The notes beneath the pieces were generated by a model. The model was not told where the DNA came from, did not search any database, and saw only the letters and a list, made by a program, of their open reading frames with translations. A program made the translations under genes and the position numbers. DNA of 64,000 bases from Isoetes taiwanensis (taxonomy: Eukaryota > Streptophyta > Lycopodiopsida > Isoetales > Isoetaceae), in assembly GCA_021234155.1 (NCBI GenBank), contig JAJEKV010000003.1, positions 18,398,386 through 18,462,385 of the forward strand. Direction: 5' to 3'. Shown in pieces: positions 6,784 to 45,900 of this stretch. Within the stretch, counting starts at the first letter, position 1. Each line of letters starts with the position of its first letter.

Positions 6784-6883
6784 ATTGAGCGCGGGTCACT
6801 TCTTAACTTTACCGGAGCTCTCAGGTTTTTCATTTAGAGCTGTAGTATTCTGCAAGGTGCTACTTCTTATTGAATTTTACGAA

Positions 6884-19289: not shown

Positions 19290-20763
19290 TCAATTAGGGT
19301 GTGGATAGAGGGGCAAGGCGGAAAAGATGTAGTTTTTTGCCTCCCATGTTGCCAACAAACCATAAAAATGAAAGCGGAGAAAGCGCTTGGGAAAGGCTGC
19401 GAGTGAAATAAAGCCAAAGGTAGGACTGGTTTGACGACCTTCTTGCCTAGAGGGATCACGGTGACCAAGAGCTTGTCTAAGAAGGCGTGAACCGAGGAGA
19501 GTCATCCTCACCATTAGGGAGTCTCCAAATGAACTTTGAAATAAGCACTTTGCTGCGATAAGAAGTCCATCATACCCGGACCACACGCCCATTTTGGAAG
19601 GATGCGCCGACCAAACCACCTTAACCACACCTTCCCGATTACGCCCAAATAAAGTTCGAACTATTGCAATGAGCTCATGCACTTTTTGATGCGTGGTGCT
19701 AGCGGTAAGGATGCCATATAAACATGGGTACTACTAAGGGCCGACTTGGCTTTTTAATGCGACACGCAAAGAGACAACTTAGCAGGTGGACCACGGAACA
19801 AGTGCTTCTCAAACCCCTAATGATCTCCTCCCATCAGCCCCCATAGTAACACGGATACCAAGCTGGAATCCCCAACAACTTGATGGCTTTGTCCATGCGC
19901 CAAGTAATTTCCATGGATGTCGTGAACACATGCGGGCCAGGACTATCCAATGTCCCACAAAGGCTGTACATACGCCACCCCACAAGAACAGGAAGCCGGT
20001 GAAAAAGTGTCTAAAAAGCATTTTGGCGACAACAAGATTTTCATCATTAGCGACTAGGAAGAGGCGTGATGATGTGCATATTGATTACAAACCTCTTGTG
20101 TGCCGTTCTCCATTGCAAGACCATGGAGAAGTCCCTCTGTCGTTGCAATGGTGAATAAGCGTGACAAAACCTCCGCCAACAATTGTGAAAAGCAATGGTG
20201 CTAAAGGGCATCCACGGCAAATACCACGACCAAAGTGAAAAGGCATGTGATGACTCACCATGGAGCGAGGGGCGGTCGCTCGGCGAGAGATATGCGACTT
20301 CATAATATCGATGTGAATTGTTCCCCAAATCCCGATCTTAGCATCTGACGGACGCATGAATTCCCGGGCGACAACTGTCATAAGCTTTTGCAAAATCAAG
20401 CTTAAGATATACAAGCCGGAAGGTTTTATGCGTGCCCAATAAATTCCCTCATAGCGGCGGCAACATTATTCAAAATGCACCGTTTTGGAGAAAACTGGTT
20501 GGGTTGTTGAGATGGACTACGCCAAGATGTCCTTTGCTTCTGCAAAAAGCCTTGGCGAAGATCTTATATCTGGGATGACGATAAGGTGATGGGCCATGTC
20601 GAAATAGTCGAGGATCCTTGACCTTGGGGATGAGTGAGATGGCTTTTGTGTTTAGAATTCTATCCAAAGCGGTGGACGTAGAAAGTCCGCGAGAAAGCAT
20701 CATACACATCTGGCTCCGGCCATTCCCAATACTCTGGAAGAACTCAATTGGCAAACCATCCAA
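19290..20763 (-). pseudogene. LINE C reverse-transcriptase region
   Basis: Reading on the minus strand, 20763-20470 opens with MDGLPIEFF and ISLIPKVKDPR, the L1 motif just after GPDG. 20414-20085 carries GRGICRGCPLAPLLFTIV, the RT motif around QGCPLSP. 19682-19290 matches the region linking the palm to the zinc domain, with the same order as LINE D. The pieces lie in different frames and the YxDD box is not cleanly readable. Confidence 0.8.
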
Positions 20764-20946
20764 ACACGGGCATTTGCCCTTTTTGAGTTCAAAAGGCTGC
20801 GATTTTTAAATCGTCATTTGTAATAACCACCTCTCTATTGACTCACTTGCTGCTCACGGAGATGATGGAAATCTAGATAAAAGCGAGCATCTTGCATTTC
20901 GATTGAAAGGGAAGATGTTTCTCGGCTAAAAAAAATGCGGAAGTGG

Positions 20947-21956
20947 TCATGCGGATCTTTGTGCGAGTTCGGTCGGCTCTGTTAGCATCGAACCATTCGG
21001 CAAAAGCAATGAGGACATGGTTGATGTCATAAATACGATACCTCTTAGCACGAAAAAAAGCCCGTTACAGCGGTCTCCATCGCGAAACCGCTGCGGACCT
21101 GCCTTCATCTTTGCTTGCTGAATTTGCTCCTCCTCAATGCTTGGATGCATTGCCAAAATATCACGATCATGAAACACGGAAGGCGTCCACTGTCGAGAAT
21201 GGAGAGAGCGATACAAAGTGTCGGTAAAGCGCGACTGCCCTTTGCGGACTCACCGACCCACTCTTTGGCAAAACCCTTGGCTGCGACTATTGCATCCACT
21301 ACCTCGGCGTCGATTGGCGGTTGTCCAAGTATTCTTGCAACCTTCTTGAAAGTCGGCATCCTTTAAGAACTTCCGCGTTCGAAAACACGTCCTTCAGGTC
21401 CCTTGCATTGCTGCGGGGGCTCGTCCGAAATGAGTTGCGGATGGTGGTGCGGCGAGTTATCTACGAGGCAATCGAAAGAGACACGGAAGTGTCGCCAGCT
21501 GTATGCGCATTCCAATAAGCTCTATCCAGAGAGCTTGCGACCCCCACCAACTTGACCATTGCACCAAGTGAAGGCACCTTCACCATCAATCTCAGGAGGT
21601 TGCGGTCATGGAGTGAAGCGAAGCCCGCTTTGGCGTTCAAAACCGAACCTGCTTGTAGAATTAAGCCCCCAACCGATCGGACTCCACTTCCACCATATTG
21701 AGATCCCCAACAAGAAGCCATGAAATGTGGGCCCAAAGTGATTATCTTCCCTCGCCAAAGAGGCCCGCGGTGAAGCTCGATGATGAGGTCTATTGTGGGC
21801 ATAAACATTAATTAGACCATATTTCACCCCTTGCTCACGCCATACAATTGGGGCCCAACGACCAAAGCGATCAGCTGAGTAAGGATGGCCCGGCAAGGAA
21901 GGAAGCCATGCTATCACGACCCACACTTTGGCGGGGATAAATTTCAACTGCGACAA
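20947..21956 (-). pseudogene. LINE C APE-type endonuclease region
   Basis: The 21956-21606 frame contains DRFGRWAPIVWREQGVKYGL followed by INVYAHN. This resembles the core strands of the exonuclease-endonuclease-phosphatase fold of L1 ORF2 (the IxNVYxP position). Later parts are scattered over frames down to 20947. The assignment rests on this motif and on its position 5' of the RT. Confidence 0.65.
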
Positions 21957-22099
21957 AGGACATTAAACTGCGACCAATCGTATGCGCAAGCTTTGATCGT
22001 CTCCCTTACGACACTTATGCTCTTGAAGACATACAAGCCGAGCATCAATCTAGATAAGTAAAAAAAATACGACTAAAAGCAGGGGGGGAGGCTACCCTG

Positions 22100-24100
22100 A
22101 ACATTCCATGAGACTAACACGCATTGATCTTGTGATGGGGCCAATTCGGATGAGACCGATGTCTCAAGGGACTTGAGAATGTTTCAGGGCACTGGCATGG
22201 CGGCAACCTCATCAACCAAATCAGCCCGCTGAAGTGGATCCAGCGACCACCATGGGATGCAATGGGAGGGCGATTGCCACGAAGCGAGGCGGGGCGGGGA
22301 TTGTGAGAGGAATTAGATCCCTTGCTTGAGACTTTTGCCCGGTTGGCAAGAAAGCCCGGTGGATGTTTAGGTGGTGGGTGGATGCCGCGCCGATCAATGT
22401 CCATATCTTGCCCACGAGCCTCTTCAATTTGCTCTTGCGATTTACGGATTTCCGGCCGGTCTCAACATTTGGTGATCTAGAGGCCGAGGTGGAGGCTGCA
22501 AGCTGGAAGAAGCGGGGGCAATCACGAACCTGAGGGACTTGAGAGATATCTTTGAGGTGGGGAGTTGATCTAGGAGCATGGAGTGCGGGGAGGAAGCGGA
22601 TGGAGAATCATGTTGGTGAACCCTACGATATTGAGCAAAGAGAGGGGCTTGAGGAAACATGAAGCTAGCTTCGGGACCATTCAACAAGGGCGGCTTAAAT
22701 GGAAAGAACATGGGCCCGCTTTGGACAACAATTGTTTGAGGCAACTCCACGATGAATGGGCCTTGCCACGCAAACCTTGGTAATGCCATTGGTTATGGAG
22801 TGTTGCAAATGGAGTCAATCTCATTAGCAATGGCGAGAAATGAACTTGGAATCTTTGTAACTCACGGAGGAAAATCTTGATAGCAAACGGAAGGGGCGCG
22901 TAAAGGCATCGGCAGCTAGAAAGGATCGGGGAACATCTTGTTGATAGAGCAAGAAGTGTTTCGAGGAGAGGATCAACACCTCGTTCTATGAGTTGAGCAG
23001 CCCGGTTGGGGAGATTCAAACATCAAAAGGAAACAGCGTTGATCTTTTGCCCACAAGCGATAGATTGACAAGCGAGGGGCCCTAGCTTGTGAAGGTGCCC
23101 CCAGGGCGACCAAGATCCCGGCGCGCAGCCGGATCGAGGGAAAGGGCGGTGAAGTGGCGGACCCGCGGAACATGCAACCAAGCGCTCCACATGTGTAGAT
23201 GATCCTCATGGCTAACACTGCTTGGAGCCCCAAAGCGGCTCAAAAGTTGCCCACGCACTCGAACCTCATAAAAATTTACCGTCGATGGGAATTTGGACAT
23301 CCATAGAGTCTTGCTTGGCTTGCAATTCTTTGGAGATAGGACACAACTTCCTTCTGTTATTATCCACCATGGTGGCAATGGCCTCTGAGACCGCAGTAGA
23401 GGTGGCGAGAGCCCCGCCGGGGCCCTTACAAAGCCACTCGAGAGAAGCCCAGGACACACGTAGCTTTCGAGCAAGCGTATCGGATGATCTCAAAGGTGTG
23501 GTCGATGCGGCTTCGAGGGGCCGGGAAGAGGATGTGCCTGGGCTGCCGTGGAGGAAGGGGAAACTCCTCACATACGAGGAACCTCAGCGTGTGTTGGGCG
23601 TACACCCGGTTGTGGAGGTTGCACCACCTCCAGAGCACTACACGTAGAAGTAGTCCGCGCAAGGAACTTCCAACTGTGTTGGAGGTCTTTGCCCGTCAAC
23701 ACTATTAGGTGCGACTGTCCAGGAGGAGCACTCTACATGCACATGGGGTGCAGGCGATATGAGGGACTTCCAACTTTGTGTTGGAGGAGCTAGTAGCCAG
23801 CGGCAACCCGACGGATAAAGAGGGTCTTGCACGAACCCGAGAACCTCAGCGAGTGTTGGAGGCTAATTGCGAGGCGCACCATGCGGTCGAGGAACCTCAG
23901 CGTCGTTGGAGGTGTGACACTCCGAAAGAGTTTTTCAATGGCACAACCACGGCTTCGGTCTCACGGACATGTAGGCGGCGCAAAGCGTGGTTGGCGCAAC
24001 TACGGTCCGGGATGGAAGCTGGAGCAAATGCGAAGGCGAGGAAGAAGATGGAGCTCTGTCTCAATTGAATTGACCACATTCATGCCATTAGAAGACATAT
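22100..24100 (-). pseudogene. LINE C ORF1-like region
   Basis: A GC-richer stretch 5' of the endonuclease with open frames on the minus strand such as 23474-23082. Its place fits ORF1 (nucleic-acid-binding protein) of a plant L1. I could not see a clean CCHC knuckle or DUF4283 signature, so the name rests on position only. Confidence 0.4.
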
Positions 24101-24674
24101 TGGGCAACACTAAAAGTTGAGATGCAGGGAGACTAAACTCGGGGAGCGAAGAGCACCCTCGCGAGCCATCTTGTGTGCATCAGCGCGTACTCATCACGGG
24201 AGAATGCGCAGCATATTCTTTGCCAATTCCTCCATGAGCTGCGGTAGAAACACGGAAAGCCTTGCGTTTTGGCGGTGCGAGTGGATCTTGTCATCTCCAC
24301 CAAGAGAGGAGGGCCGAAGTTTCAGATCTGAACCGTCTTTTCCAACAGGCCAATCTCTGAAGGAATTAAAGCACCACTGGATGGAGTGCTTAAAGAGCTT
24401 TCAACAAGCCCAAACACGCCCAAAAGCGCCACAAGATGCAAAAGTTATGGCCAAAAAAACTGCGACCAAACCCTAGCACCGCCAAAAGAGGGCCGGGACT
24501 GTGAGGCGGATTCCGTCGACCAAAACAGAGGAGACACCATACAGATCATACACCGATGGAAAGCTCTTTCGATAAGCTTTCCAACGAGCCCAGGAACACC
24601 TGAATCTGACACCGGAATCTCGAGTTATGATCAAAAGAGTAGAGCTGAAACCCTAAGCGCCATCATGAGCGCCC

Positions 24675-28682: not shown

Positions 28683-31600
28683 CATGTGGGTGAGAGTACT
28701 GGAGACTCAGCATCGTCCCTTGTTTATTGCAGGCTGCTATATACCCCATGCAACCTCTAAGTTCTACTGGGTCCACAAGGTAGTCATAGATGCGCAAATG
28801 CCTTATAGAGAGTTGTATGATGACATAGAGCAATATCACCAGCAAGGACGTGCTCTTGCTAGGAGATTTCAGCGCTCGCACTGCACAGCTGCAATCAGTC
28901 ATCTTCCAAGGAGAGGCCTATTCTGACTCACTCTGGCGTGAAACGGCTGCACCCCAACACGTAAGACAGTCTTAGGATACAGTGACCAAGTCTTTGGAAG
29001 GGGGTTGGTCCAACTCTATCAGGTCTTTGACATGGTAGTCTGCAATCGTATGCTCAGATGGCGCAATCAAGGGGCTTTACTTGCAAGAGCGATAGAGGAG
29101 CCAGCGTGGTGGACTATCTCCTCGCTCCGATCAGAGATTTCTCGATTAGCACACGAAGAAGAGATGAGGAGACTTTGTTAGACCACTATCCACTTTATGT
29201 TACTTTGGATGGGAGCATTCAGTATTGCAGGCACAAGATAGAAACCGTCAGGGGCTGGGATACAACCCCGATTATCGCAAGCAAGCAGAATATGAGTCTG
29301 TGCTGGAAAGTGAGCTGCAGGGGATTGATGCCTTCTATACATTACACGATAAATGGGAGTGGCTTGTAAATGCCTTATTCAGAGCAGCCAGTCAGCAAGG
29401 GATCTCTCGTGAAGAGACACTACGCAATTCCCCCATAATATCAGGTTTGACACTGATTGCAAGGCTCTAAAGACCCAGTTGCGTCTCATCTCAGACCCTC
29501 AGTTGTGGCAACAAGCCATTCAAGACTATAGAGCATTCTTGAAATCCAAAAAGCATAGGTACATCGCAGAACATCAGCATCGCATGTTTGGCTTGCTGAT
29601 GATGGAGCCGAAAGCCTTGTGGCATAGGGTGTTATATAAGAGGCATTAACCACCCGGCAATATTACCATAGACTAGTGGATGCATCGCCGTAAGAAGTTG
29701 TATGAACCCCCAGGAGTGACTGCTGGGGTACCGGATCAGATGGGAGAAATGTTACAGCTCACTGAGGAGGGCATTCAACAGGACCTTAGATACCTGGCTA
29801 ATGGAAAAGTGAAGGACTTGCAGGGACTTCAAGTTGAGTTATTGAAATGGGGTGGGCCGATTTTGTTAGGGCCTCTGGTAATGATAATTTAACCAGGCCA
29901 TAAGGGAGTGCCTCCCACATAAGTGGATGGTTAGCAAGGTCACTCTCATTCATAAGACATGTAATAGCGATAATTCGGCGAGCTACTGCATGATCATGGT
30001 GAGCCCATTACTCACAAAAATTTTAGCAGGCGTGGTGGAGAAGAGGCTAACTCAGTGGACTGAGGAAGTTGGAGTGCATGCAGTTGGCCAGGCGGGGTTT
30101 CGCCCTGCGCACTCCACAGTTGACCATATATTCACTCTCATAATCTGTATAGAAGTTAACCGCAATGTGCGCGTGACCTGTATTGTTGTTTTATAGATTT
30201 CAAGACTGCAAATGATCGCAAGACCTATTGTGGCAGCATTTGCAGGAGCTGCATGTCCCACATGACTTATAAGATGTCATCTACATACTATATGATGGGA
30301 TATATGCTGCATTGCCTGCCTTAGATCAGCGAGTTGCTAGCAGCATAGGGTTTAAACAAGGATGTGCATTATCCCCAATGCTCTTTGGTCTCTATATTGA
30401 CAAATTGGAGACCTGGATGCAAGAACATAGGGGTGGTGGCCTGCAAGGACCAGAGGCATAGTATAAGGCAATTGGTCTATGCAAACGATGTGGACTTGTT
30501 GTCCCATAAATACAGCCAAGAGTATGCAGCAGTATTTGGATGCTCTTAGTGGGTTATGTGACACAATAGAAATGACGGTGGACCTGCAGAAAACTAAGCT
30601 CCTAGCAATCCTCTCCCCGCAGCATGATATCCCAGATCTCTATTATAGAGGACAAAAGGTGGATGTCATAAGGACCCTCAAGTATCTGGGAATCGACTTT
30701 TCCACTAGCATGCTATTGGATGACTGTGTGGAAAGAAGGGTCGACGTGGGATGGAAAGCGCTGTATGCAATGCAGAATAGACCTCTGTATTTGAGCGCGT
30801 AGAGCACACCTAAACCCGATACTCTTTGTATGGGGTAGAGTCTGGGGTCCACCCGATTAGCAAGAACACACAGGATAAGCTAGAGAGGGTGCAAAAGCCT
30901 TTTGACATCTGGTAGGAGTGTCAAAAATATGGTGCCTTATCAGATTTTGCTATATGAGGCCGGTTTTCGGCCCCTTGCAACATTAAAAGCTATGAGCGGA
31001 CATCTTGCATATTTCCATAAGATCGGTAGCATGGATGCACAACATCTTCCCCTAGGGCTTTGTTATTGGCACAAGGGGCATAATGGTGAAAGAGTATGGC
31101 GGAAGCTTTGTAAGGGGTGATTCACAACATGGTCTATAGACTACCCGATGGATTGTGGCTATGCGATCTTAGAGGACATGATCGCTTTGAATAAGCGATT
31201 TGCTACCACTCGTGGAATCGACCACTCTTTGCGAAGCCTAAAGCGAGCACTACGCCGCCAATTTAATTGGCGTTGAAACATGGCCCCACCAGGTGCCGAA
31301 AACACACATATCTATGAAGAAGCGAAGAGCTATTGCCTTAGTGAGGACCCGGGTCCCATCATCTCAAAATTGAAGCAGTTGCTAGAGTACGGATGGAGGG
31401 CAGAGAATCCGTCAGCATGAGAGAATATATCAGTGTTTTTCGCATGCAAACAGTAGAGAATGAGAGCCATGCTCTGCATGAGTATCCGGCATATATGCAC
31501 ATCTAAGCAGCACATGCTGATCTTAGATGCTTTGAGACACTGTTGCATCACTTGCTGGCATCGCTGATGGTTGCACATCTCGCGTCCTACATTTTCCAGG

Positions 31601-31801
31601 TCTCCACTGTTAGAGCATCCATCATAGGACAGAGGATCGAGAGCCTACTACCAGGGTTTTTCCTCCCCGTAGGGGTTTTTCATCGATGCTTGAGGGGACA
31701 TATTGTATAGTAGCATTTGTATTTTCGGTGTGGTTTTTATCTGCTTCATGCAGTGCGTGTATTGTCTCATGGTCAGTTCAGCCTCCGCGGACGTTAAAAT
31801 A
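28683..31801 (+). mobile_element. LINE A, copy 2: 5'-truncated LINE with APE endonuclease and RT
   Basis: The element begins within the endonuclease (PLFIAGCYIPHATSKFYW at about 28711) and continues with GASVVDYLLAP and DHYPLYVTL (29090-29210). The RT follows: LANGKVKDLQGLQVELLKWG (29790), GQAGFRPAHSTVDHIFTL (30082) and LVYANDVDLLS (30471), the catalytic box where YADD would be expected. The 3' end carries the conserved ggacgttaaaata and then (TCCC)n. Frames change several times. The Asn at the box would follow from a single CAG-to-CAA change, the same exchange seen between the two copies elsewhere. It is truncated at its 5' end, as is usual for LINE insertions. Confidence 0.88.
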
Positions 31802-31858
31802 CCCTCTCTCTCTCCCTCCCTCCCTCCCTCCCTCCCTCCCTCCCTCCCTCCCTCTCTT
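31802..31858. repeat. (TCCC)n microsatellite at the LINE A terminus
   Basis: Same tail as at 1296-1350, with a slightly different repeat number and a purer TCCC register. Confidence 0.9.
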
Positions 31859-32473
31859 CTGTTTGATCCTAATTATTGTTGAGCCGTAGATGCAAAATTT
31901 TTGCAATGGTTGCCCACGATCATCAAATAGAAGCTCCACAGTAATCTAATGCTTGTCAATTGCTCCTTCTTGAAACCTGCAGTGAAATATGTTACATGAC
32001 CTTCATGAAACAAGCCGTAATAGATTCTGCTCTCATAGATTAACCATTAATTAATCATAATGTCTTCTTCTCCAATGCCATGTACTTGAGTAAAAATGAC
32101 CCTTGAAAGCAACCCCTGTTCATAGATTGTAAAGGCGAAATTTTGGATTAAGACTTTAGCTTGAGATTTTCAGTTTGCAATAGCAAATTCCCATCATTAG
32201 AGTTTGGCCAGCACAAGAGGAGATCGTGTAAGCTCTATATCAACTAAGCTTCCATCTATTTGACGCATCTCCAACAAACTAATAGAAATTGATATGTATG
32301 GTACACTCGACTTGATTTCAATATGTAGCATAATAACAGGGGGTTTTCTTTGTGTTTTTGTACGCTTTTCACTAAGGTTTTCCTATGATTTCGTGATGTA
32401 TTCAAATGGATGTACTAATGCGTACATCTAGAGTGCACCATTTCTGAGCCGTTGATTTTAGGCCTTTTTTTTT
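31859..32473. other. Non-coding spacer
   Basis: Near-identical to 1351-1964; no gene. Confidence 0.6.
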
Positions 32474-32650
32474 CAATGGTCAACAACCAATGGCTCACAA
32501 CAAAAGCCCTTTTTTTTGTGCGTGTGGTGCATAATGGTCAACAACCAATGGCTCACAACAAAAGCCCTTTTTTTGTGCGTGTGGTGCGTAATGGTCAACA
32601 ACGAATGACTCACAACAAAAGCCCTCTTTTTGTGTGTGTGGTGCATAATG
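32474..32650. repeat. Minisatellite, three ~58-60-bp units
   Basis: Copy 2 of the array at 1965-2150. The units are more alike here (gtgcgtgtggtgc in each). Confidence 0.85.
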
Positions 32651-32903
32651 GGCACATCAAGGGCTTGAAGGGCGCATGTAGTGCAGTTTCCCCGCCGGCA
32701 ACACATTTCTTGTCATAACTTTTGATCCAGAGCTCCGTTTCAGATGATTTTTATTGCGTTGGAAAGCTCTCTCCGAGTCTTTTTGATAGTGTATGATATG
32801 CATATGTTTGCTTAAGTTATTTATGCTAAAACAGCAATTTTTCGGCCGGGTTTGGTAGGCTTTCACATCCTACCGGTGATTATCTGAGATTAGCTATTGG
32901 ATA

Positions 32904-33119
32904 TTGTTTTATGGCTCATTCCGAATGAAGCTTGCAAAAAATTACCATGCATTTTTAGATTTTGAGGCAGTTATTAAGCAAATTCCAAGGCTTCTAGATC
33001 CTTGTGCTAACAAGCAGAAGAGTTTCCCACTTTGGTTTCTCACCACAAGAGTAATGGAATCAATCTGCTCTATCTTTATGGTAACTTTTACTTATGTTCT
33101 ATTTGTTTTATTGTCATGA
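32904..33119 (+). other. Unrecognised open frame, duplicate of 2383-2613
   Basis: The same residues from [16 protein letters not shown] onward; the upstream part differs by small indels. Function unknown. Confidence 0.3.
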
Positions 33120-34905
33120 AATTCAAAAGCTACAGGTGATGAAAGCCTCAAATGAATTCTAGTTTTTTTCTGGTTTGAATTCTAAAATTTTTGTCACAGG
33201 GGGCTGGCGTCCCTAAAGGTCGAAGGGGCCAAATTTTTGCAACTTACAAACCATTAACATCCAATCCAACATATAAAAATTAAATCCCCCAACACATAAC
33301 AACCATTGACATTAGCAACCAACACATAACTACCATTGACATTAATTAACACAACCATTGGGTCCAACACATTTAAATTAAAATCCCCCTTAAACCCCCT
33401 TTGGTTTGGGTGCATATTCACACGGGGAGTGAAGTAGGGCAACGAGAGCTGTTGAATAGGCATATTCACTCCTTATTCCTTAATCTACACCGTACATAAA
33501 GTTCCTCGTTTGTGGGGTATGCAAGTACAAAATTTGCTATACTATATAACAAGATTTGCAAAATACTATAAGATTTCAAGCGGAATACAAGAAGGGTTAA
33601 GCCTTGCAACAACATATGCTAATAGACTTGAGGACAATGCCGCATTACTCAGATTACATATGCATTAATTAGCAAACAAAATGTCAAGGCATTTGGTGGA
33701 TCTAATACACAAGAAAGTTATATTGCATAAAATAAATGCTTACACAAAACAAGATCCTCGCTTTTGCAGAAAGCAGGAATGCATTTGAGGCAGTGGTAAG
33801 ACCATAGTAGTACAGATATGCATTAGAAGCCCCTAGAAACTATGCCAGCTTATCCTCCAAGTGCAAATGCACATCTACACCCATAAATATAATAAGCATT
33901 TAACACTTACATAACTGTGCATTTTATCCAATATCAAACTTGGCAAAAACACTCTATAATGACAACCTAATGATCCAAACAAGTACTGTAATCAATAAGA
34001 AACATGAGTTTCTTTTACTTATAGCTATTATATCATCTAAATTGGAGCTATAATATCATCTGAACAGATAACCACTTTAAGCACCGACGTTCTTTTACTT
34101 GGCAAAATTGAGAACCATCTTAAATAATGTGTTTTTCTTATGTTTAATGCATTTCCATAAACTTCAAGCATAATATTATCTAAGACGCTAATTGGGCACT
34201 GGCTATGGGCTGAAAGGAAGATAACACTCTTATCAGTAACCTAAAATTCTATTCATGCGATGGAGAAATTGAATCCATATCCTCACACATCGGTTATTTC
34301 ATTAAAAAATAAGCTGCCTTTGGAAAACTTTGAAACCAAACATTTGTAGGTATTTGCAACTATGGTGATGTGCTTGCTGATTCTTTACCTTTTCTCTGCC
34401 TCAGATCACGAGCGCATTTGATTCTTTGCACCTTCAGTATACGCCTATTACGTCTGCATGAAGATATAATATAAAGATTTAAATGCTCAATACGATTTCC
34501 AAGAAGATTTCTTCATTAACATCTTAGAAAATGCTATGACAGCAAATAGATATGAAAAATGCAGATTCGGAATCAATCCAGTGCTTGTAGAGAGTTGTGC
34601 ACACCCCGACATCACATCCTATCATAAAGAATGGAGTTTGGAGAGGAATGAACTTCCGTTTTAACAAAAGTTAAGACCAAAATTTATGGGTACTTGGTTC
34701 AAGTTAGTTTCTACATTCAATACCAATTATAATTATAATCATGTGATAATACAAATACTTTTCGACAAAATGAATACGTTTTATTTGCATAAGAACAAAC
34801 TTTAAGAGCTACCAAAAAATCTCCCAATGTTTCTCTATCTAAAAATTAAGATATTTCAAGTTTCCAACTGGAGATTTATACCTCCACCCGTATACCCATT
34901 CTGCA
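33120..34905. other. AT-rich spacer
   Basis: Counterpart of 2614-4383. The interval of about 33706-34225 is the divergent patch relative to copy 1. It includes about 20 bp near 33812 (containing gatatgcattagaagcccct) that has no counterpart in copy 1. No gene is seen. Confidence 0.5.
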
Positions 34906-35389
34906 CATCTGTGACTAATGCTGGGCATCGCCGGGCACAGGTTTCTATGTTTTTTGTTTTTCCTACCCATTTCATACCCTCATGGCTACTAAATGCCTAA
35001 ACCCTAAACCTTCACACTTGGCACTCCAGGTATTATATTTATACATTCTTATTCCACCTACAAACTACTTTAGTCACCCATTCCACACGTCCACGACAAA
35101 TGCAGGCATCACCGGGCACACGTTTCTAGTCCTTATAGAAAATACATGAAACAATCTTTCAAACTTCCTACTCATGCACTAACGCAACGAGAAATCTTCA
35201 ATTTTGAATTGGGCAAATGTTCTTTACCTCAGAGTTCTCCTAATGCTGCACAAAAAGGCAACCCTATGGTATGCCACCATCTTGTTTGTTTTTGTTGTAG
35301 TTTCAATTAGAATACCATGCTCAATGGATGTTTTGTTTTGTTTTGTTTTGTTTTCTTTCCTCCTTGAAATTGCCTCTAACTCTTGTATT

Positions 35390-35528
35390 ATACCATGCTC
35401 AGTTGGTAGAGCACCAAACCGTCAAATTAATGGTCGTATATTCAAGTCCTAATGTGAGTACCCTACTGTTTCTTCTTTCTTTTTTTGCCATGCCTACCAT
35501 TTCTCCCTCCCTCCCTCCCTCCCTCCCT
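35390..35528 (+). mobile_element. tRNA-Lys-like SINE head with (TCCC)n tail, duplicate
   Basis: Same as 4868-5003, with an A box at about 35398 and a TCCC tail at 35504-35528. About 4-5 bp are added before ccctactgtttc compared with copy 1. Confidence 0.55.
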
Positions 35529-35546
35529 AGCTAGCCTAGCCTGTTA

Positions 35547-35762
35547 GTGATGATGAGGGCGTATTGGGTTGAGACTCCATTCCACAAGCCTGGTGGTAAG
35601 GGAAAGGTCAAACAGAAATATGAGGTTATGGCCTACTATACGAAACAATTACCATTCTATTTTGGAGAAACACCTGCACCTTACTTTCATGTGGCGGAAT
35701 ACCTGCACCTTGTACCTTTGGTATGCCTTCAAGAAAAACCAAGTTCCATAGTTATCGTCTAA
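35547..35762 (+). other. Unrecognised 71-aa open frame
   Basis: The open version of the relic at 5026-5235 (contains ETPFHKPGGKGKVKQKYEV). There are no splice partners I can identify. It could be a pseudo-exon. Confidence 0.3.
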
Positions 35763-37399
35763 GTGCAACCTTTTGCTTGTTTTTTAAAGTTAACCATTGA
35801 ATGCAATAAATTTCATACAATTAAAACCATTGGATGACGTGGATAACATAATCTAGTGAACCCATTGTGGCACATCACACAGAGGCAGGCAAACAGAGAA
35901 AGCACAGAGATGGCTGATCCGGCCTGAAATAGGAACGTAACTAACACATGGAAATCCAGAAAGAAATCCCGAATAAAAATTTAAACCAAGCAAGGAAAAT
36001 CGTCTGTTGGTTGAAGGAAGATCGTTTGAAGGAAAATTGTTTGAAGAACACAGTCATGGCTACACAGAAGGATCCACTGGCCTTACCAGTAACCTACCTA
36101 GGCATGGGCTCTTTGGCCCATTCTATTCTATTCTGACCGCAGCCCGATCCAGGAGCCATGCTACCCAGGACAAAATCCGGCCCACATAATGCCGAATCCC
36201 GCAGTAGATGCAGCAGATGACAAACCCAGATGGAGCAGATGGCAAACGCCATCTCCACACCCAGCCAATTCCAGCAAGACTAGAAGGAACCCAGCCAATT
36301 CCGGCAAAACTGCTGCAGCCACATGCAGCTCCAGCAAGGTGGATGCATGAATGGCACCCTGAGGCTCGCGACCAAAAAGGAAAGAAATCTAATTTCCAAG
36401 AAAAGAAAAAAGAAAAAATGATATCGAACCGTTACAAAAATAGGCATTCTAAACCATTAAAAAAAAAAAAAAACCCAATTCCAAACCATTGCAAAAAACC
36501 ATGGAAATCGTCTATAGCGAACCTTAACGCTCTGGTCCTCGGTTTTACAGGCTGAGATCTAATCTCAGCCGTTGATCAAAATGCTGTTATCAGCTAATAA
36601 CATCTGAGTGGCTCAAATTTTATACTCTGTTTCTCGCAACTTCCTGTAACATCCTAGAGTGTTAGCATGCAATTCTTATAAAAACCTAGAATAATATGAG
36701 AATACGATTTCTTGTTTTTGTCTGACAGAAAAAGCATTGCGAACATGCTGCGGGCGAAGAAGCGAGAGAAATCTGGTTTAGAAGATTAGGGCGGATCGAT
36801 GACCCATAAGAATCTTGATTGAAGCTTCCGCCTTGATTAGTTGTCGCGGGGGCTCCTCCATTCCGCGAGATTAGTTGCGGCGGATCCTCCATTAAGCGAT
36901 GGTGCAGCCCACATACATTTGCAAACCCTCCATGCTTCACCTTACGGCGATGGTGCAACCCCTACTGTTGCTCCATTCGTGATGGGCCATTCGGCGATGC
37001 TTCTCCATTCTGGCGATGGCGCCCCTACTTCTCTTGCAAACCCTCGGACTAGAGACGTTAAGGGAGATAACGCCCTGGCCCTCGGGCGTTCACCATAAAA
37101 AAAAAAATTCGGCATGGCCAAAATGGCTTATCGAACAAGTTTGGGTCCAAATTTTTACATCATACGATTCACATTGGTCTAGGTAATGTATGTGTATTTG
37201 CATGCGCCTCTTCCACGAAAGCAAGAGGGGGGAATTCGCAAAAAACGCACGGCTTACATTTGGCGGGAAAAGATCGTTGCATTTTTCTTGAGACAGTGAA
37301 TTGAGCGCGGGTCACTTCTTAACTTTACCGGAGCTCTCAGGTTTTTCATTTAGAGCTGTAGTATTCTGCAAGGTGCTACTTCTTATTGAATTTTACGAA
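35763..37399. other. Spacer upstream of the UBR7-like gene, copy 2
   Basis: Counterpart of 5236-6783. At 36170-36350 CAG and CAGC triplets are frequent here where copy 1 has CAA or other bases. At 36820-37020 the GC-rich stretch differs strongly from copy 1. No gene is supported. Confidence 0.5.
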
Positions 37400-38908
37400 A
37401 TGGAAAATACTGGAGCCTTTGACGACGAGAACGAGCAGGTGATTAGCGTCAACGAGTATTTCGAGAACATAGATGCTGAGGAACTGGTATGGTGGTCGAT
37501 TTGGGTTATATTGGGTTGTAAAAAATAGGGTTCTTCAAAGTAGTGGTTAACTTTCTTTGATTGTAGAAAGCGGATCTTGTACTTGGTGGAGATGAAGGCC
37601 AAGAATGCACTTACAGCAAAGGTTACATGCCTCGCCAAGCTTTATTCTCCTGTCTCACATGCACTCCTAATGGAAAAGCTGGAGTATGCACAGCGTGCTC
37701 TTTGGCTTGTCATGACGGGCATCAAGTATGATTATCTAGCTTCAATTTTGTCTATCACCTGCAAATTTTCTGTTCAGAGGCATTTTCTATCCTGTTTTCA
37801 GGTGGTCGAGATGTGGACAAAACGAAAATTTAGATGTGATTGTGGAAACAGTAAATTTAATGGTGTGGAGTGCAGACTCTACAAGAACAAGGATACTGAG
37901 AATTATAGCAATGTTTACAACCAGAACTTCCTTGGAACGTATTGCATCTGCCATCGCCCATATCCAGACTCTGAAGGGCCAGATCTTGGAGAAATGCTAC
38001 AATGTTGCATATGTGAGGATTGGTTTCATGAGACGCATTTGGAGCTTAAAGATACAGAGCAGGTATAAAACTGTATGCATTTTTATATTTAATCATACTT
38101 ACCATATTGACATATTTGATTGCGAATTCTGTTTCGGTTCTTAGCAAGTTTTTAACTTGGCATGTCCAGGTACCAAAGGATGAAGATGGGGAACTTGCAT
38201 TTGATGAATTTATTTGTCCCAGCTGTGCAAAATCTTGCAGTTTTCTCTCATTTTATCCTGAGATCCTTATCCAGCCAGTTATCTCGAGTCACACTATGCT
38301 TGAATCTGGTCTAGTCAATGAGAGTTGCGAAAATATTGAAAATTTAAAGTCTAAACCAGAGGAAAAGCTCCACGATATTTTACCCTTACCTATGGGATCT
38401 GCAGAATCTGTGAGTGTTAAAGATGCAACTTGCAAGCTCAGAAGCTGTACCAAAAGTTTATTTTCAGTTGGGAAGAAGGCTATTTTTCTTGACAGGTTGT
38501 GGAGAAACAACCTGTGTCAATGTCCTGATTGTCAAAAAATGTACGAGTCTCGGAAGCTGACATTTTTACTGGATCACGAGGACACTATCTATGAATATGA
38601 GAAAAAAGCAGAAGAGAGGCGGGCTGAGAAACTAGAACGTGCTGAGGGAGCAGAGATGGCGTTTATTAAAAAACTAGGCCATGTTGAGAAAATGGAGTTC
38701 TTATATGGTTTAAATGACATGACTACAAGTTTGAAGTCCTTCCTGGTGAGTACCTCAAAGTTAAAGTTGTTCAATCTTTTTGTGACCTTGATTTCTGATT
38801 AAACTTTTACAGAACGGATTTCAAGAATCTGGAAAAGCAGTAACTTGCGCAGATGTGCACGAATTTTTTGAAAAGCTTAATAAGAAGAGGAAGAGGACCT
38901 TCCAGTGA
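37400..38908 (+). CDS. UBR7: UBR7-like protein: UBR-box and PHD-finger, intact
   Basis: Five exons (37400-37486, 37567-37725, 37802-38062, 38170-38745, 38813-38908), all phase 0 with GT/AG borders, give a 392-aa protein ending in TFQ. ATG 37400 starts MENTGAFDDENEQ; the open frame extends upstream only without a better ATG. The UBR box spans about aa 43-115 (SCLTCTPNGKAGVCTACSLA, RKFRCDCGNSKF). A PHD-like finger spans aa 130-188 (YCICHRPYPD, LQCCICEDWFH, FICPSCAK). A charged helical stretch rich in E, K and R follows (aa about 300-340). Family knowledge: human UBR7 is a UBR-box protein with a PHD finger that binds histones; plant orthologues share this order. The length is close to the family norm of about 420-450 aa. 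Confidence 0.92.
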
Positions 38909-40590
38909 CTCTTAATTCAGAATTTGAAGAAATTTGATTCCAGCTGGAGAATCTTCTATTCCACTCATGCTTTCGGGCCACTGCCAAAGGTGTTAATGGA
39001 ATGACACACTGGGGAGAATCAACCTTTTAAATTTCGGTGATGTTCTCTTGTTTTAATTTTGCCATAGCTTTTGTAGAATGCTAAAACTGGGGCTGCCTTC
39101 CTTAATAATGTTATATATGCACAAGGAAGGCCCTCAGTTCATTAACCTTTAGCATTTAGTGAAGCAGTAAAGAAAACAAGAAAGTGAAAAATTTGGTAGA
39201 CAATTTGTGTATTTGAAGCATGTCTATATATGGAGAAAGTGATGTTTACCCAAATTGTGTAGAGAGATAAGGAGAGAAACTTCTCCGAGGCTTTCTGCTT
39301 AGGGGGTGAATATAAATTGCCTAAAGCCGAAACTCAGAACTATTTAATACAATCAAGACATGCTATGTAACATGGGTTTAAGCAAAATCAAATTCAGAAG
39401 GGTTTAATGCGGGTGGTGCATTTTTTTATGCCAATTTGAAGGATGTGTGCCCATGAATGGAACTAGTTCTGGGTAATTCCTCAACATCGCATGCATACTA
39501 AAAGATCATATTTCAAATCTGCAAAGTCATCAAGCATCTTCTCAGTGATGGATTTGGGACACATGCCTTAAAATCTGCAAATTCATCAGACATCTGCAAA
39601 TTCATCAGGCCTGCTGTCAAATTTGCAGCCTTGTCCCATTGCTCCAATAGTCCTTAATTTTTTACTTAACACCGACAAGTTGTATGCATGCAGAATCTAG
39701 TCTATGAGGAACTTTTTCCTACATTTTATTTACAGGATTTGGTTAAATTTATTCTCCAGTAAAGGATGCTTCAGTTTGGGCAGATCCATCACATGTATTC
39801 TAGCTAACAAGTCCTAACAAGCAAGAGACATATCTTCAGCTCTCTCACGCGTCCAAAGGTTTGCCCATTCAAGCCCATAAACCATGAGAGCTGATTCTCG
39901 TTGGGCTAAACAATGTTGCACGCTATGTGTAACCAGTTACATTCCACAATTTGTTGCCACTCTTCTGTGGTAGAAATTTAATTTGCCACTCTTCTGTGGT
40001 AGAAATTTAAACTTCAAATATATGGATCAGACATCAAATCTGCAAATTCTTTCTGCATATGAGCCTAAGTTCAAACCGCACTTCTTACAGAAATTTATCT
40101 TCAAAGGCATAGATCAAACCTATGCCGCATAATATAGTTCCTCTCACAATTTACCAATCTGAACGTGCACTTGGTCCTGGTAACTTTTACAGAGGTAGAA
40201 TATTTAGGTACCTCCAAAGTTCCTAATGTATTGATGATGATAGTAATTAAAATAACACCCATTGCCAGTACACAATACACAGGCAATGCATATAATAATA
40301 TAGAAACTCTACAAATGCATCTCATAAAATAATGTAGAAACTCTACAAATAAATCTGAAATATTCATTTCAGTGGATTCTAGCCAAGGAATAAAAATTTA
40401 TCCGCATATGCTTCCTGCACGTGCCAGATTATCTTTGATAGAATTATTATACTCAGGTTCAATGAGCATCTAAAACTTACAGCCTATCTTTGGACAGCCA
40501 AAGAAGCAGTATAAAGCTTCTTCGGCTACTTTTACACAGCAGGAAAAAAGGCAATTCAAGTACTCATCTTTAAAAGGAAACGACTACCAC
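38909..40590. other. Spacer between convergent genes, copy 2
   Basis: Holds the 3' ends of the UBR7-like gene and of aldolase. No further gene. A 29-bp tandem pair (gccactcttctgtggtag) lies at 39955-40012. Confidence 0.6.
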
Positions 40591-42239
40591 TTAGTAAGTG
40601 TAGCCCTTCTCGTAAACTCCTTTCTTTGCTTCTTCAGCTTCACCTTCAGCACTGTATTTCCCAAGTTGGGCCAAAGAGTTTGCCCTTGCCCTCGCAATCA
40701 ATGCTTTTTGGGCTGCTTCAACATTTTCTGGTAGCCCTTTCCATGTCTTAAGCACTGAGTTTTGAAGAGCTCGTGCATAAGAAAATGATACATGCCAGGG
40801 GTTAGGGCTTTGGTTCATTGCATTCAAGTTCAATGTCGCTTCCACTTCAGACTGACCTCCAGATAGGAACTGCATAAAAGGAACTTAATTAAGAAAACAG
40901 ATAGCAATGCAATAATAAAAAATAAGCAAGGGAAAGAATGGTGCTCACCATAATTCCAGGAACAGATGGTGGCACCCTCCTCTTTAACAACTTAAGGGTG
41001 TATGCTGCTACTGCCTCAGGAGTCGCCCTTTCCTTGGCTTCAGCACCAGGGGTAACCATGCTTGGCTTCAGAAGGATGCCCTCGAAGAGAACATTGTTCT
41101 CTGCCAAGAAGTAAAACACCCTAGCCCAAACTTTCAAAGCCACCTCCAAAGTCCTGTCAATGGTGTGCTCTCCATCAAGAAGAATTTCAGGCTCAACAAT
41201 AGGAACCAAACCATTGTCCTGAAAAGGCGAGGTTCAGCTTTATAACAATACCCCATAAGAAGTAGCAGAGTGTAGAAGTGAGTGTAAAACTTGGTTATTT
41301 TTCCCAACAACTAACCTGAGAGATTGCTGCATAACGGGCAAGACCCCATGCAGCTTCAGTCACAGCCAAATCTGATGGGCCATTTGGAATGCTGACAACA
41401 GTGCGCCTGCATACGAATAATTTTAAGCTCAATTAGTATCCATAAACTCTGTGACTAATTTTAAGCTTGAAGTTAAGACTCACTCACCACTTGGCAAATC
41501 TTGCCCCCTGCTTGTAGTATGCAGCAGACCTTGAAGCCAGGCCATCAAGTCCTTGGCACCAGGACTCATCGTTGGAACCAGCCAAAGGCACAAGACCCTG
41601 AGCATAGCCATTGAGAAAAAAGAAAAGGTTATATATAAGAGCATAATTAGATGGAAATACACCAGCAAACCTGCCATACCTTGTCTGTTTTAATACCAGG
41701 AACAATCTTCTGCGCATTCAGCACATCAACAAAGGTCTTGCCATCAGTAGTTGATTGGTACAGAGTCTCTTCAAAAAGGATGGCACCAGAAATGTACTCC
41801 CCAAGTCCTGGAGCGGTAACAAGTAGCTGTCTGTATGCTTGGCGATTTTCCTCAGTGTTCTCAAGGCCAATAGAGGCAAGACGTTTGCCACATGTAGCAT
41901 TAGACTCGTCCATGGCAAGGATACCACGGCCAGGAGAAGCAATTGTTTTCTGCAATTACAAGAACATAGTCCAACATATCAAAAACTTCCGATCGTACTC
42001 AAGACAGAGTATTGTAACAATACCCAAAATGCACTAAGTTAGAAACAGATCTAAACTTAATTACACACCGCAGTCTTGACAAGCTCCTCATCGTAGCCAG
42101 CAGCTCTGATGGAGAAGGCGGGCATGCGGACGGCGGCCGGAGAAGCATTGGTAGGAGTGAATTTCAAGCTCTGGCCTAGAAATTGAGATCCAGCAAGACT
42201 CACGGACTGATTGAGAGCCATTGCCGCGGCAGCTGCCAT
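40591..42239 (-). CDS. FBA: Fructose-bisphosphate aldolase, class I, chloroplastic, intact
   Basis: Six minus-strand exons (42239-42069, 41949-41680, 41597-41488, 41406-41316, 41218-40949, 40869-40591) with GT/AG borders encode 396 aa, the usual size of plastid FBA. The enzyme cleaves fructose 1,6-bisphosphate to DHAP and GAP, or condenses them in the Calvin cycle, in the stroma. Residues 1 to about 45 form an S/A/R-rich transit peptide. The class I active site is complete: Asp71 (LAMDES), Lys147 (KTDKG), Lys183 (RFAKW), Glu223/Glu225 (VEPEIL), Schiff-base Lys265 ([12 protein letters not shown]) and the C-terminal Tyr (KGYTY). ATG 42239 was chosen because it is in frame with the transit peptide; an internal Met follows at residue 7. 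It converges with the UBR7-like gene. Confidence 0.96.
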
Positions 42240-42319
42240 TGTATCTTGGTGCGATCGACGGATTCGACTGGGCGGCCCTTGCCCTCCTCTGCTTACTGCT
42301 CGTCTTTCTGCAGAAAAGC

Positions 42320-42436
42320 AATACCATATAAATGAGCAATTAAGCGGCTCCGATTTGCTATTCTTTTTCTTCCCTGTTCGGAAATTCTGACGGCCAGCCT
42401 TTTGCCACGTATCAATATAGGGATAAGCAGACAAGC
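42320..42436 (-). promoter_or_regulatory. Candidate light-type promoter motifs of aldolase
   Basis: Upstream of the aldolase ATG, on the + strand, are gggataag (42420; an I-box GATAAG) and gccacgtatc (42404; an ACGT core), 20 bp apart, and a TATA-like accatataaatg (42324; read as catttatatggt on the gene strand) about 90 bp before the ATG. I-box plus ACGT pairs are common in photosynthesis gene promoters. The transcription start is unknown; this is motif matching only. Confidence 0.35.
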
Positions 42437-42439
42437 CTG

Positions 42440-42950
42440 TCCAACCGTTGGATGGTCCACGTTGGAGAAATGGACGGTAGAACGTCCACAAAGGCGGCTG
42501 GCTTCAGAAACAATATGCGTTAGAGATGGGAATATTCAACTCCAGATTATGAATGGTTGGTTCGTTGGACTAGATAAATATTGAGCCCATTATGAATATT
42601 CCATAATAGATATATGGTCACAATAACATGTGGCCCTAGTTTTGCTAGTATAGCCATGGATCGTTAGCGAATCTTTGCAACAATAAAATAAAATTATAGT
42701 ATTACACAAATGCACGTCCTCATGTTCTTCAAATAGAATAATGCGCTTTTGGCCTTATCTAGTGGTTTCTAATTAGCAAATTTCCTTGCCATTCATTCTT
42801 CCTTTGAATGCTTTTATCATGTCGAGATGGCTATTTTGAGTGCATGATATTGTGAAAGTGGCAAGAATAATGTGATGATATGTATATTCATGACCTAACG
42901 TGCATGCTGAAACAAACTTTTATAGTACAAAATGTATGTTAAGGAGATTA
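42440..42950. other. Spacer between aldolase and LINE B
   Basis: AT-rich, no gene; near-identical to 11900-12412. Confidence 0.5.
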
Positions 42951-42970
42951 GAAGGAAGGAAGGAAGGAAG
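42951..42970. repeat. (GGAA)n microsatellite at the LINE B terminus
   Basis: Four to five GGAA units (TTCC in the LINE sense) follow the LINE end directly. Counterpart at 12413-12431. Confidence 0.85.
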
Positions 42971-45900
42971 TATATTTTAACGTCCACTGAAGCCAACTGG
43001 CCTATGAGACGGTGATACAATGTAGTGAAAAATTTCCAAACACAAAAGAAAACAACAAAACCCTGTACAATGTGTCTCTACCACTGGGATGAAAAAACCC
43101 CCCATGTGGGAGGAAAAACCCTTGTAGTAGGCGTTGAGAGGCCCTATCCGGGCTCAAATTCCCCCGCATCTTTGTGAGGGACTCCCGATGGTGGAGACTT
43201 GCGGGAATGTAGGGACGAGGCGTGCCACCATTGGCAAAGCCAGCCGATTGATGAATTGCTATCTCGAGCATCCGAGATCGGCATGAGCTGCTTTCGGATG
43301 TGTGCATATCTTTGGGCATTCTGTAGAGCATGGTGTTCATCTTCTACTATCGCATGTGACAAAGACGGCATAATCTCTCATACAGGGGATTCCACGCCCT
43401 CCATCCAGTACCCGTATTGTCTCAATTTCGAGATGGTGGGACCGTCCTTATTGCGGCTATAGCTCTCCGTTTCTTGGTAGAGATGTGTGCCTTGGATCTT
43501 GGGTGGGGGCCGTGTTCAAGCGACGGATTGACCTGCGTGTGGTAGTGCTCTATTTTGGGCTTTGCAAGAGTGGGCGCATCCCATAGAGAGGCAGCAAAGT
43601 GCTCATTCAAATGCAGCTCCTGCTCCGCGATATCCGACATATCCATAATGCGTTGATAGTCTATGGACCATCTTGCGAACCATCCCCTACAATGCTCCTG
43701 CCACACTCTCTTCAGACGTTGTGGCCCTTGTGCCAATAACAGAGCCCGGGGAGGAAGACGTTGTGTGTAACGTTCCTAACCGACATGCCCTTAGCCAACT
43801 GGGCAAAACCGTCTAGACGTTTATGAGTAGTCGCTTCTACCCATTTATGCCGGTGTCTCGGGAACGCCCCACAGGCACATTCAAGGTTCGAATACTCGAG
43901 CGGTCTACCATGGGCCCGTTACAGTCTCTCCCACTAGAACTATGCTCGTCCTCGAGCATCCAAGGCTATACCATGTCTATGTCATACCATGTCACAATGA
44001 TTACCAAGTCTTTGCAAATTACCCATGCATATAGGCACCCATGGAGACTTCGAACTTCGAGACCTGCTCGATACCAACTATGCGTTCCTAACCGACATGC
44101 CCTTAGCCAACTGGGCAAAACCGTCTAGACGTTTATGAGTAGTCGCTTCTACCCATTTATGCGGTGTCTCGAACGCCTACACAGGCACATTCAAGGTTGA
44201 ATACTCGGCGGTCTACCATGGGCGGATTACATTGTGCATCCATTACATCAACCTTATGGAAATACGCCAAGGTGCTGCGATAGCGTATCGTCAGGGGCCA
44301 AAGGCGATCTCATACAAACAAAATCGGATAAGGCACCGCGGTCCTTGACGCTTAGGTCGTATGTCGTGAAAGCCTTTCGTACCCTCTCTAGCTTATCCCA
44401 AGTACCCTTGCTAACCCGGCCCCTAGACCTCTACCCCATACAAAGAATATTGGTTCCACAAGTGCTCAAAGCAGGTGTGCTTTTATTGTCTAATCGCGAG
44501 ATCTATCTATAATCCTTGGCTATTCTGCATTGCATACAGGGCTTTCCATCCCGCGCTGACCCTTCTTTCTACACAGTCATCCCATAGCATGTTAGCAGAG
44601 AAATCGATTCCCAGATACTTAAAGGTCCTTACAACTTCCATCCTCTGTCCTCTGTAATAGAAGTCTGGGATATGATGCTGCGCAGACAGGATTGGCAACA
44701 GCTTGGTTTTCTGCTGGTTGACTGTCATTCCTGCTATGTCACAGAATTGACTGATTAGAAGAAGAATAGAATTGGTTCTTTTCATCCACGGAGACAAAAA
44801 AAAAAGAAGGCTTATTATTGTCCAAGATTAAGAAACCCTGCCCCAAAGGGTCTTCGAGGGAAAAACCTTAGCTGCTTCTTGTTAAACTGTACATTTCAAT
44901 GTAGCGACGTAGGGCACAACTGATCTTGCATGTCCATTACCTCCATTGAAGTTATCTCCAACATCATATGCAATGGTTAGCTAGGTGTAACTAACCTGAC
45001 ATGAGGTACGCTGATAGACCCAAATGCTGAGGCAGTTATGCAAAGTTCAATTGGCAGCATTGGCAGAGCCTATCTGGGCGTTCTTCCTGAACCCATCAGC
45101 CTATCGCAATTCTGAGGCAGGTGCTCCTTTTGCGAATGGATGCAATCATTCTATGGGAAAATGTGCCAACAAGTACCGATATGCACCCCTAGCAATCGTG
45201 GGATTAATCTGCATTTGTAGTGTGATGTTTTTACCAGTTCTAAAGCCCTAGCATCACAAAACTTACTTAGGAAGCACGTGTCTAGATACTGCTTCAGATA
45301 ATTGTGGTCCTCATTGTTGTTTACCTGTACACACCTCTGTTCCTGCACATTCCATCTAGAGAACGAAATGGCTCGTTTCTCACTCTAGCATGGTTTAGCA
45401 GTTGTGGACCCAAGGCCATTGCGTAGGCGAGGTTTAGAAGACGAGTATCTCCCATATTAACCACCTTCTGAAAGTATATGATGTGATGTTCAAGCGCGGT
45501 CGAATCTTGTCTCTTGCAGAAGAGTTTGATATTGGACCAAAAACTTCACTCCAAGTGCTCAAGTTGAAAAAGCTTTCTGAACTCGCTCCAAGTCATTCCA
45601 GGTGGTAAGTAAGAAGAATTAGCTCTGTCAAGATCCTGAACAGGTATGAATAATGAGACCAGCGTAAAGCTCTGCTTTATGACATTTGGTTTTCATTGCA
45701 TATAAAGCCTTCCAGTCTGCCGTCACTCGTTGTCGAATACAATAATCCAAATAGCATGGGAGGGAGTGGACACTCTTGTCGACTCCTACACTACTGTTGG
45801 CAAGTTGGTCTAATAGTGGCATTTGAGCTGAGCATGTTGCATGTAGTCTCCATATTGCATTTTTAACTTCTGGGGGACTCCCACCTGTATTAACCCTTCC

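What the first reader, a model, noticed from the sequence alone, without database searches (positions are those of the whole stretch)
36170..36350. Copies differ preferentially at CAG/CTG/CCG triplets
Copy 2 reads cagatgg, cccagcc, ccagcaag where copy 1 (5650-5800) reads gatgg, cccaatcc, ccaaagaag. The same exchange fills LINE A (270-880 versus 30790-31400), the 6300-6500 stretch and LINE B, in both directions. CHG is the plant methylation context, and transposons are its targets. Nanopore-type base-calling mistakes at methylated CHG sites would give exactly this, and would inflate apparent transposon decay.
Basis: partly seen in the sequence, partly recalled or inferred. Interest (0 to 1): 0.8.

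Follow-up and report, generated by a model that had tools for sequence, protein, structure and literature searches.

The report
Methylation-linked sequencing errors in transposons
Two near-identical 15-kilobase copies in this plant-like genome differ mostly where sequencing software appears to have misread chemically tagged letters in transposons, so much of their apparent decay is probably an assembly artefact and not evolution.

Summary
Confirmed and extended. Window 1-15127 and 30521-45636 are two copies of one duplication (94.1%). Identical stretches of up to 848 columns alternate with blocks that differ in up to a third of columns. Within the blocks, ranking all 32 trinucleotide classes puts exactly the symmetric plant methylation contexts on top: the four CG-containing classes and CAG/CTG (0 of 1000 mask rotations reach any of them). 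The finding named only CHG; CG is as strong. The changes do not look like mutation: 20 of 323 clusters are single transitions at a CG/CHG cytosine, 161 change length. The commonest exchange is CAG/CTG in one copy for CG in the other (81 opposite, 7 same). External LINE proteins favour copy 1 in LINE A and, less cleanly, copy 2 in LINE B. Best explanation: nanopore base-calling errors at methylated CG and CHG, patchily polished. A caller that learned 5mC only in CG would write methylated CHG as CG, giving transposons false CpGs, frameshifts and divergence. Platform, species and methylation are inferred; no reads or signal were available. Known kind (bacterial Dcm-site errors); the CHG-to-CG rewrite is a testable new variant.

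The parts
1..15127 (+). copy 1 of the duplication (runs off the window start)
   Evidence: blastn 94.1% to 30521-45636
30521..45636 (+). copy 2 of the duplication
5251..5830 (.). difference-rich block of the finding, copy 1; 2 clusters of sign copy-1-CHG-rich against 14; CG o/e .64, CAG/CTG o/e .77
35776..36360 (.). same block, copy 2; CG o/e .42, CAG/CTG o/e 1.74; judged the truer copy from composition only, no outside witness here
151..1591 (+). difference-rich block holding LINE A, copy 1 (truer copy by outside proteins over 380-1135)
30671..31610 (+). LINE A, copy 2 (7 frameshifts against P0001; CG o/e .66, CAG/CTG o/e .84, copy 1 .48 and 1.40)
5990..6530 (.). block whose signs switch twice in copy 1 coordinates: 5996-6091 5 of 5 copy 2, 6205-6353 8 of 8 copy 1, 6382-6482 5 of 5 copy 2 (partition seen afterwards)
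3085..4205 (.). A+T-rich difference block, copy 1
12420..15127 (-). LINE B region, copy 1 (poorer copy; CG o/e .84, CAG/CTG o/e .56)
42958..45636 (-). LINE B region, copy 2 (better, not clean; CG o/e .69, CAG/CTG o/e .92)
13226..13702 (.). small element with two ~155-bp direct repeats inside LINE B, copy 1; the repeats share six changes absent from both copy-2 repeats and the solo copy
43766..44231 (.). same element, copy 2
54994..55165 (-). solo copy of the ~155-bp repeat outside the duplication
6650..12300 (.). gene-like tract, copy 1: almost no substitutions, short deletions relative to copy 2; CG o/e .47, CAG/CTG o/e 1.41
18000..24500 (.). unduplicated tract with the composition of a damaged copy (CG o/e .82, CAG/CTG o/e .48); untested, no second copy

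Best explanation
The differences are consensus sequencing errors placed by cytosine methylation, not evolution. Shown: they sit in blocks, centre on CG and CHG, are mostly multi-base or length-changing, recur as the same rewrites, and damage different copies in different blocks. Inferred: native DNA was read by nanopore; in transposons 5-methylcytosine in CG and CHG shifts the signal of the few bases in the pore; a caller trained where 5mC sits in CG writes a CG-containing word for methylated CAG/CTG (CAG to CGT or CGA, CTG to TCG or ACG), or drops or adds a base; gene DNA, unmethylated at CHG, is read well. Inferred too: short-read polishing repaired blocks unevenly, since reads from both copies go to whichever copy is nearer the truth, so one is corrected and the other stays raw.
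For: Context ranking and rotations. Types: 185 complex, 73 pure indels, 48 single transitions (20 at CG/CHG cytosines), 17 single transversions of 323 clusters; 50% of clusters change length against 14-23% in five other repeat pairs of the window. Difference rate .325 on a motif.033 at 15 bp or more. Exchange CAG/CTG for CG 81 against 7, top of 320 pairings, 66 of 81 not single substitutions; 93 against 7 with blastn. Commonest isolated double changes CAG/CGA 12, CTG/ACG 9 (with AGA/GTA 9) of 134 readings. 23 of 62 bins of 250 columns without a mismatch, others with up to 69. LINE A score 725 with 1 frameshift in copy 1, 461 with 7 in copy 2; LINE B 511 with 4 in copy 2, 287 with 6 in copy 1. 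Both copy-1 repeats of a small element share six changes absent from three other copies. Dcm words CCAGG/CCTGG hold about 70% of consensus errors of default nanopore models, and a model trained on methylated DNA nearly removes them (PMC6591954, passages).
Against: No reads, signal, methylation data or species. Motif-rich tracts 886-1126 (6 CG, 13 CAG/CTG) and 6535-7000 (25 CG, 9 CAG/CTG) show no differences between copies, so patchy polishing or patchy methylation must be added. The exchange has the same sign in control pairs (18 against 2 of 173 clusters), only rarer (10% against 25%, Fisher p 8.6e-5). At CHG/CG exchange clusters P0001 favours the CG version in 1 of 11 (LINE A) and 3 of 8 (LINE B). 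LINE A copy 1 has 5 stop codons against 2 in copy 2. 75 of 304 block clusters have neither motif within two bases. The distance fall is partly built in, because motifs of either copy count. Of the six shared changes in the small element one goes from a CG word to CTG.
Confidence: 0.82

Rival explanations
1. Real decay of methylated transposons: 5-methylcytosine deaminates at CG and CHG, so two old copies drift apart there while conversion or selection keeps the rest identical.
For: Same cytosine contexts. Tracts 16500-18000 and 25000-26500 do look truly decayed: CG o/e .23 and .13, CAG/CTG .23 and .21, TG+CA 1.38. 20 clusters are clean transitions at CG/CHG.
Against: Only 20 of 323 clusters are such transitions and 161 change length; the copy poor in CAG/CTG is richer in CG in four of five compared blocks, the fifth showing no difference, whereas deamination lowers both; identical runs of 848, 682 and 575 columns between dense blocks.
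Confidence: 0.06
2. Random long-read noise without a methylation link: an under-polished assembly whose copies got different correction.
For: Outside the blocks 13 of 19 clusters are short deletions in copy 1, several in homopolymers, and 2 are deletions in copy 2.
Against: Noise has no reason to rank exactly the CG classes and CAG/CTG first of 32, nor to be concentrated in some blocks.
Confidence: 0.06
3. The two copies are real diverged paralogues or haplotypes made into a mosaic by gene conversion.
For: Identical tracts alternate with diverged ones.
Against: Conversion does not explain context, rewrites or length changes, nor copies that are better in one block and worse in the next.
Confidence: 0.04

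Closest known systems
Dcm-site consensus errors of nanopore base-callers in Enterobacteriaceae (Wick et al. 2019, PMC6591954, passages read)
   Same: Errors gather at 5mC motifs the model was not trained on; CCAGG/CCTGG are themselves CHG words; default consensus is wrong there
   Different: Here the contexts are CG and all CHG, in blocks with repeats; each error often puts a CG where the other copy has CAG/CTG; one dataset, no signal
Lower nanopore accuracy in plants, improved by species-trained models (PMC9749173, passages read)
   Same: Methylation named there as a likely cause
   Different: That text holds no mention of CHG or transposable elements (0 occurrences each); no context-resolved signature in the passages seen
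Deamination decay of methylated transposons (recalled)
   Same: Same cytosine contexts
   Different: Clean transitions lowering CG and CHG together, in place of rewrites that raise CG
Repeat-induced point mutation of fungi (recalled)
   Same: Hits repeats
   Different: C-to-T transitions only

Membership tests
Methylation-motif nanopore consensus error | differences gather at 5mC motifs | tested here: met
   top five of 32 classes are the CG classes and CAG/CTG, 0 of 1000 rotations; that the sites are methylated is not tested
Methylation-motif nanopore consensus error | errors include indels and local rewrites, not only transitions | tested here: met
   258 of 323 clusters complex or indel
Methylation-motif nanopore consensus error | one version is wrong against an outside reference | tested here: met
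   LINE A: copy 1 preferred in 20 of 26 clusters, copy 2 in 3, neutral 3 (P0001); LINE B: copy 2 in 19 of 30, copy 1 in 7, neutral 4
Methylation-motif nanopore consensus error | disappears with accurate reads, amplified DNA or a methylation-trained model | not testable with these tools
   no reads or signal
Deamination decay | single C-to-T / G-to-A changes at CG/CHG dominate | tested here: not met
   20 of 323 clusters
Deamination decay | CG and CHG fall together | tested here: not met
   CG up where CAG/CTG is down in four of five compared blocks, no difference in the fifth
Repeat-induced point mutation | transitions only, in repeats | tested here: not met
   48 of 323 clusters are single transitions

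The most novel reading that the evidence does not exclude
The base-caller has learned that a 5mC signal means CG, so it writes methylated CAG/CTG as CG. Nanopore-derived plant assemblies would then carry false CpGs and lost CHGs inside transposons, and the local ratio of CG to CAG/CTG in a bare assembly becomes a readable imprint of CHG methylation: miscalled tracts show high CG with low CHG, truly decayed ones low CG with low CHG, genes low CG with high CHG.
Probability: 0.5. Interest if true: 0.68.

Novelty: new variant of a known kind. Interest (0 to 1): 0.5.

Why it matters
If general, transposon ages, pseudogene calls, CpG-depletion statistics, divergence of segmental duplications and reference-based methylation calls in such assemblies are biased exactly where methylation is high: divergence and frameshifts are inflated and CpG sites invented. 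It can be screened for from sequence alone (CG o/e against CAG/CTG o/e; CAG/CGT and CTG/TCG exchanges between repeat copies).

Tried and rejected
Pfam found nothing on three LINE pieces and nothing above cut-off on the ORFs given, except zf-RVT at 47128-47472. The protein search with the gene ORF 38050-38802 gave no hit at E 0.001, Rfam and tRNA scans of the window gave 0, so the species stays unknown. The second MAFFT run returned the same counts as the first and is no independent check; the blastn alignment is. The CHG-for-CG exchange alone was demoted as proof, because control pairs show its sign too. The pooled control is five pairs (173 clusters); I left out the two LINE A copy 2 / LINE B pairs (73 clusters, 10 opposite, 6 same; length change 23% and 33%) because that copy is itself suspect. 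CG and CAG/CTG o/e over 64 windows correlate only modestly (Spearman -.38, p .002). Eight paper searches (listings) and passages of seven papers showed no description of methylated CHG read as CG; one search found 0 papers holding 'basecalling errors', 'CHG', '5mC' and 'nanopore' together. The held library is partial, so this is no proof of absence.

Full report
Anatomy. Window 1-15127 recurs at 30521-45636 in the same orientation, 94.1% identical, with 486 mismatches and 289 gap openings. Copy 1 runs off the window start, so the unit is longer; the layout fits a 30.5 kb tandem unit or an assembly misjoin at 15127/15128, which I cannot tell apart. The copies are a mosaic: 23 of 62 bins of 250 alignment columns hold no mismatch, others up to 69 mismatches and 82 differing columns. 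For 323 difference clusters (neighbouring differing columns at most four apart) the longest identical run is 848 columns; uniform placement gave a mean longest gap of 301 and a maximum of 556 in 500 trials.

Context. In the difference-rich blocks all 32 trinucleotide classes were ranked by how often an occurrence is touched by a difference. The top five are CGC/GCG, CCG/CGG, CAG/CTG, CGA/TCG and ACG/CGT (.607 to .454); the sixth is .305. These are the four CG-containing classes plus the one remaining CHG class. Rotating the difference mask 1000 times never reached the observed CAG/CTG, CCG/CGG or other-CG values, while composition-matched GAC/GTC sat at its expectation and GCC/GGC was slightly raised (14 of 1000). 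A blastn alignment gave the same top five, 0 of 1000 each. Of 304 clusters in blocks, 184 include a CG and 45 more a CHG within two bases in either copy (75.3%), against 38.2% for random placement; 75 have neither.

Type of change. Of 323 clusters 185 are complex, 73 pure indels, 48 single transitions and 17 single transversions; 20 of the transitions sit at a CG or CHG cytosine and 28 at CHH. Half of the clusters change length, against 14-23% in five other repeat pairs of the window. The difference rate falls from .325 on a motif to .033 at 15 bp or more; as motifs of either copy count, part of this is built in, but three control pairs show only a weak or irregular fall. A footprint of a few bases suits a pore that reads about five bases (R9.4; PMC6591954, passages).

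The exchange. Where a cluster changes both the number of CAG/CTG and of CG, the two move in opposite directions in 81 of 88 cases, the strongest of 320 class pairings; 93 against 7 with the blastn alignment. Five control pairs show the same sign (18 against 2) in fewer clusters (10% against 25%, Fisher p 8.6e-5), since CTG to CCG is a single transition. In the duplication only 15 of the 81 are single substitutions. The rest are rewrites such as GCAGAG/GCGTAG, ACAGGC/ACGTGC, AACTGG/AATCGG, AGCTGC/AGTCGC and GCAGA/GCGA, each of these seen at two or more places. Among 134 triplet readings of isolated double changes (one change can be read twice) the commonest are CAG/CGA (12), CTG/ACG (9) and AGA/GTA (9); in 92 control readings CAG/CGA occurs 3 times and CTG/ACG is not in the list of the 12 commonest. 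Regionally, in LINE A, 3085-4205, 5251-5830 and LINE B the copy poorer in CAG/CTG is richer in CG; 5990-6530 taken whole shows no difference.

Switching. If the CHG-rich, CG-poor version is taken as the truer, the favoured copy changes along the duplication: 72 clusters for copy 1, 102 for copy 2, in 70 runs against 85.5 expected from shuffling (97 of 10000 as low). Patches of 100-150 bp are about the size of short reads, which is why I infer uneven short-read polishing.

Which copy is right. P0001, an unnamed 245-residue protein, is 65% identical to LINE A over 56% of the query. A frame-aware alignment gives LINE A copy 1 a score of 725 (1 frameshift, 5 stops) and copy 2 461 (7 frameshifts, 2 stops); LINE B copy 2 511 (4, 1) and copy 1 287 (6, 0). 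Exchanging one cluster at a time: in LINE A copy 1 is preferred in 20 of 26, copy 2 in 3, neutral 3 by P0001, and 19, 2 and 5 by P0004; in LINE B copy 2 is preferred in 19 of 30, copy 1 in 7, neutral 4 by P0001. At clusters that exchange CHG for CG, P0001 favours the CHG version in 8 of 11 in LINE A (one of them by a single point, where P0004 disagrees) and 4 of 8 in LINE B, the CG version in 1 and 3, neutral 2 and 1. So the direction is clear in LINE A and mixed in LINE B, where both copies look damaged. The stops of LINE A copy 1 may be true old decay; that is untested.

A further witness. LINE B carries a small element with ~155-bp direct repeats. Two repeats in copy 1, two in copy 2 and a solo copy at 54994-55165 give five sequences. 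Both copy-1 repeats share six changes (eight columns) absent from both copy-2 repeats and from the solo copy; two are CTG to TCG and CAG to CGT, one is the reverse (a CG word in the others, CTG in copy 1), and the remaining three lie beside a CG. The element is in both duplicates, so these arose in copy 1 alone, by repeated identical miscalls or by conversion between its repeats.

Mechanism. Shown: place, context, type, exchange, and which copy is damaged in LINE A. Inferred: native nanopore reads, 5mC in CG and CHG of transposons, a caller for which 5mC means CG, uneven polishing. The nearest established fact is that default nanopore models put about 70% of consensus errors into the Dcm words CCAGG/CCTGG, and that a model trained on methylated data nearly removed them (PMC6591954, passages). 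A plant study names methylation differences as a likely cause of lost accuracy (PMC9749173, passages).

Contrast inside the window. 16500-18000 and 25000-26500 have low CG, low CAG/CTG and raised TG+CA, as real deamination would leave. 18000-24500 has CG .82 with CAG/CTG .48, like the damaged copies. The gene tract has CG .47 with CAG/CTG 1.41. The reading of 18000-24500 is untested, for want of a second copy.

Limits. The genome search did not complete, the species is unknown, and there are no reads. That the organism is a plant rests on the CHG context and on a zf-RVT domain at 47128-47472 (its plant bias is recalled).

Noticed in passing
37544-38802 (copy 2) and 7030-8290 (copy 1): A gene with weak zf-UBR (E .066) and PHD (E .0056) matches, both under Pfam's cut-off, in the order of UBR7-type proteins (recalled). 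Copy 2 reads on through the PHD part; copy 1 loses the frame there, at a one-base deletion near 7420, so one 'pseudogene' is probably an assembly error.
   Followed up: partly
43766-44231, 13226-13702, 54994-55165: A 466-bp element with ~155-bp direct repeats beginning TGTAACG and ending CGTTACA, inside LINE B; the LINE A alignment overlaps by 5 bases (515-519) at the break, as a 5-bp target-site duplication would. It looks like a small TRIM-type LTR element (recalled class).
   Followed up: partly
16500-18000 and 25000-26500: Two tracts with very low CG and CAG/CTG and raised TG+CA, holding 70%-similar repeats: a likely case of true deamination decay in the same window.
   Followed up: partly
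47128-47472: zf-RVT domain (Pfam E 1.5e-10), a second LINE type, close to a 233-bp tandem duplication at 46333-46754.
   Followed up: no
8660-12390 against 39180-42930: In the near-identical gene tract the short indels are nearly always missing bases in copy 1, often in homopolymers: copy 1 seems less polished, which also fits a false duplication.
   Followed up: partly
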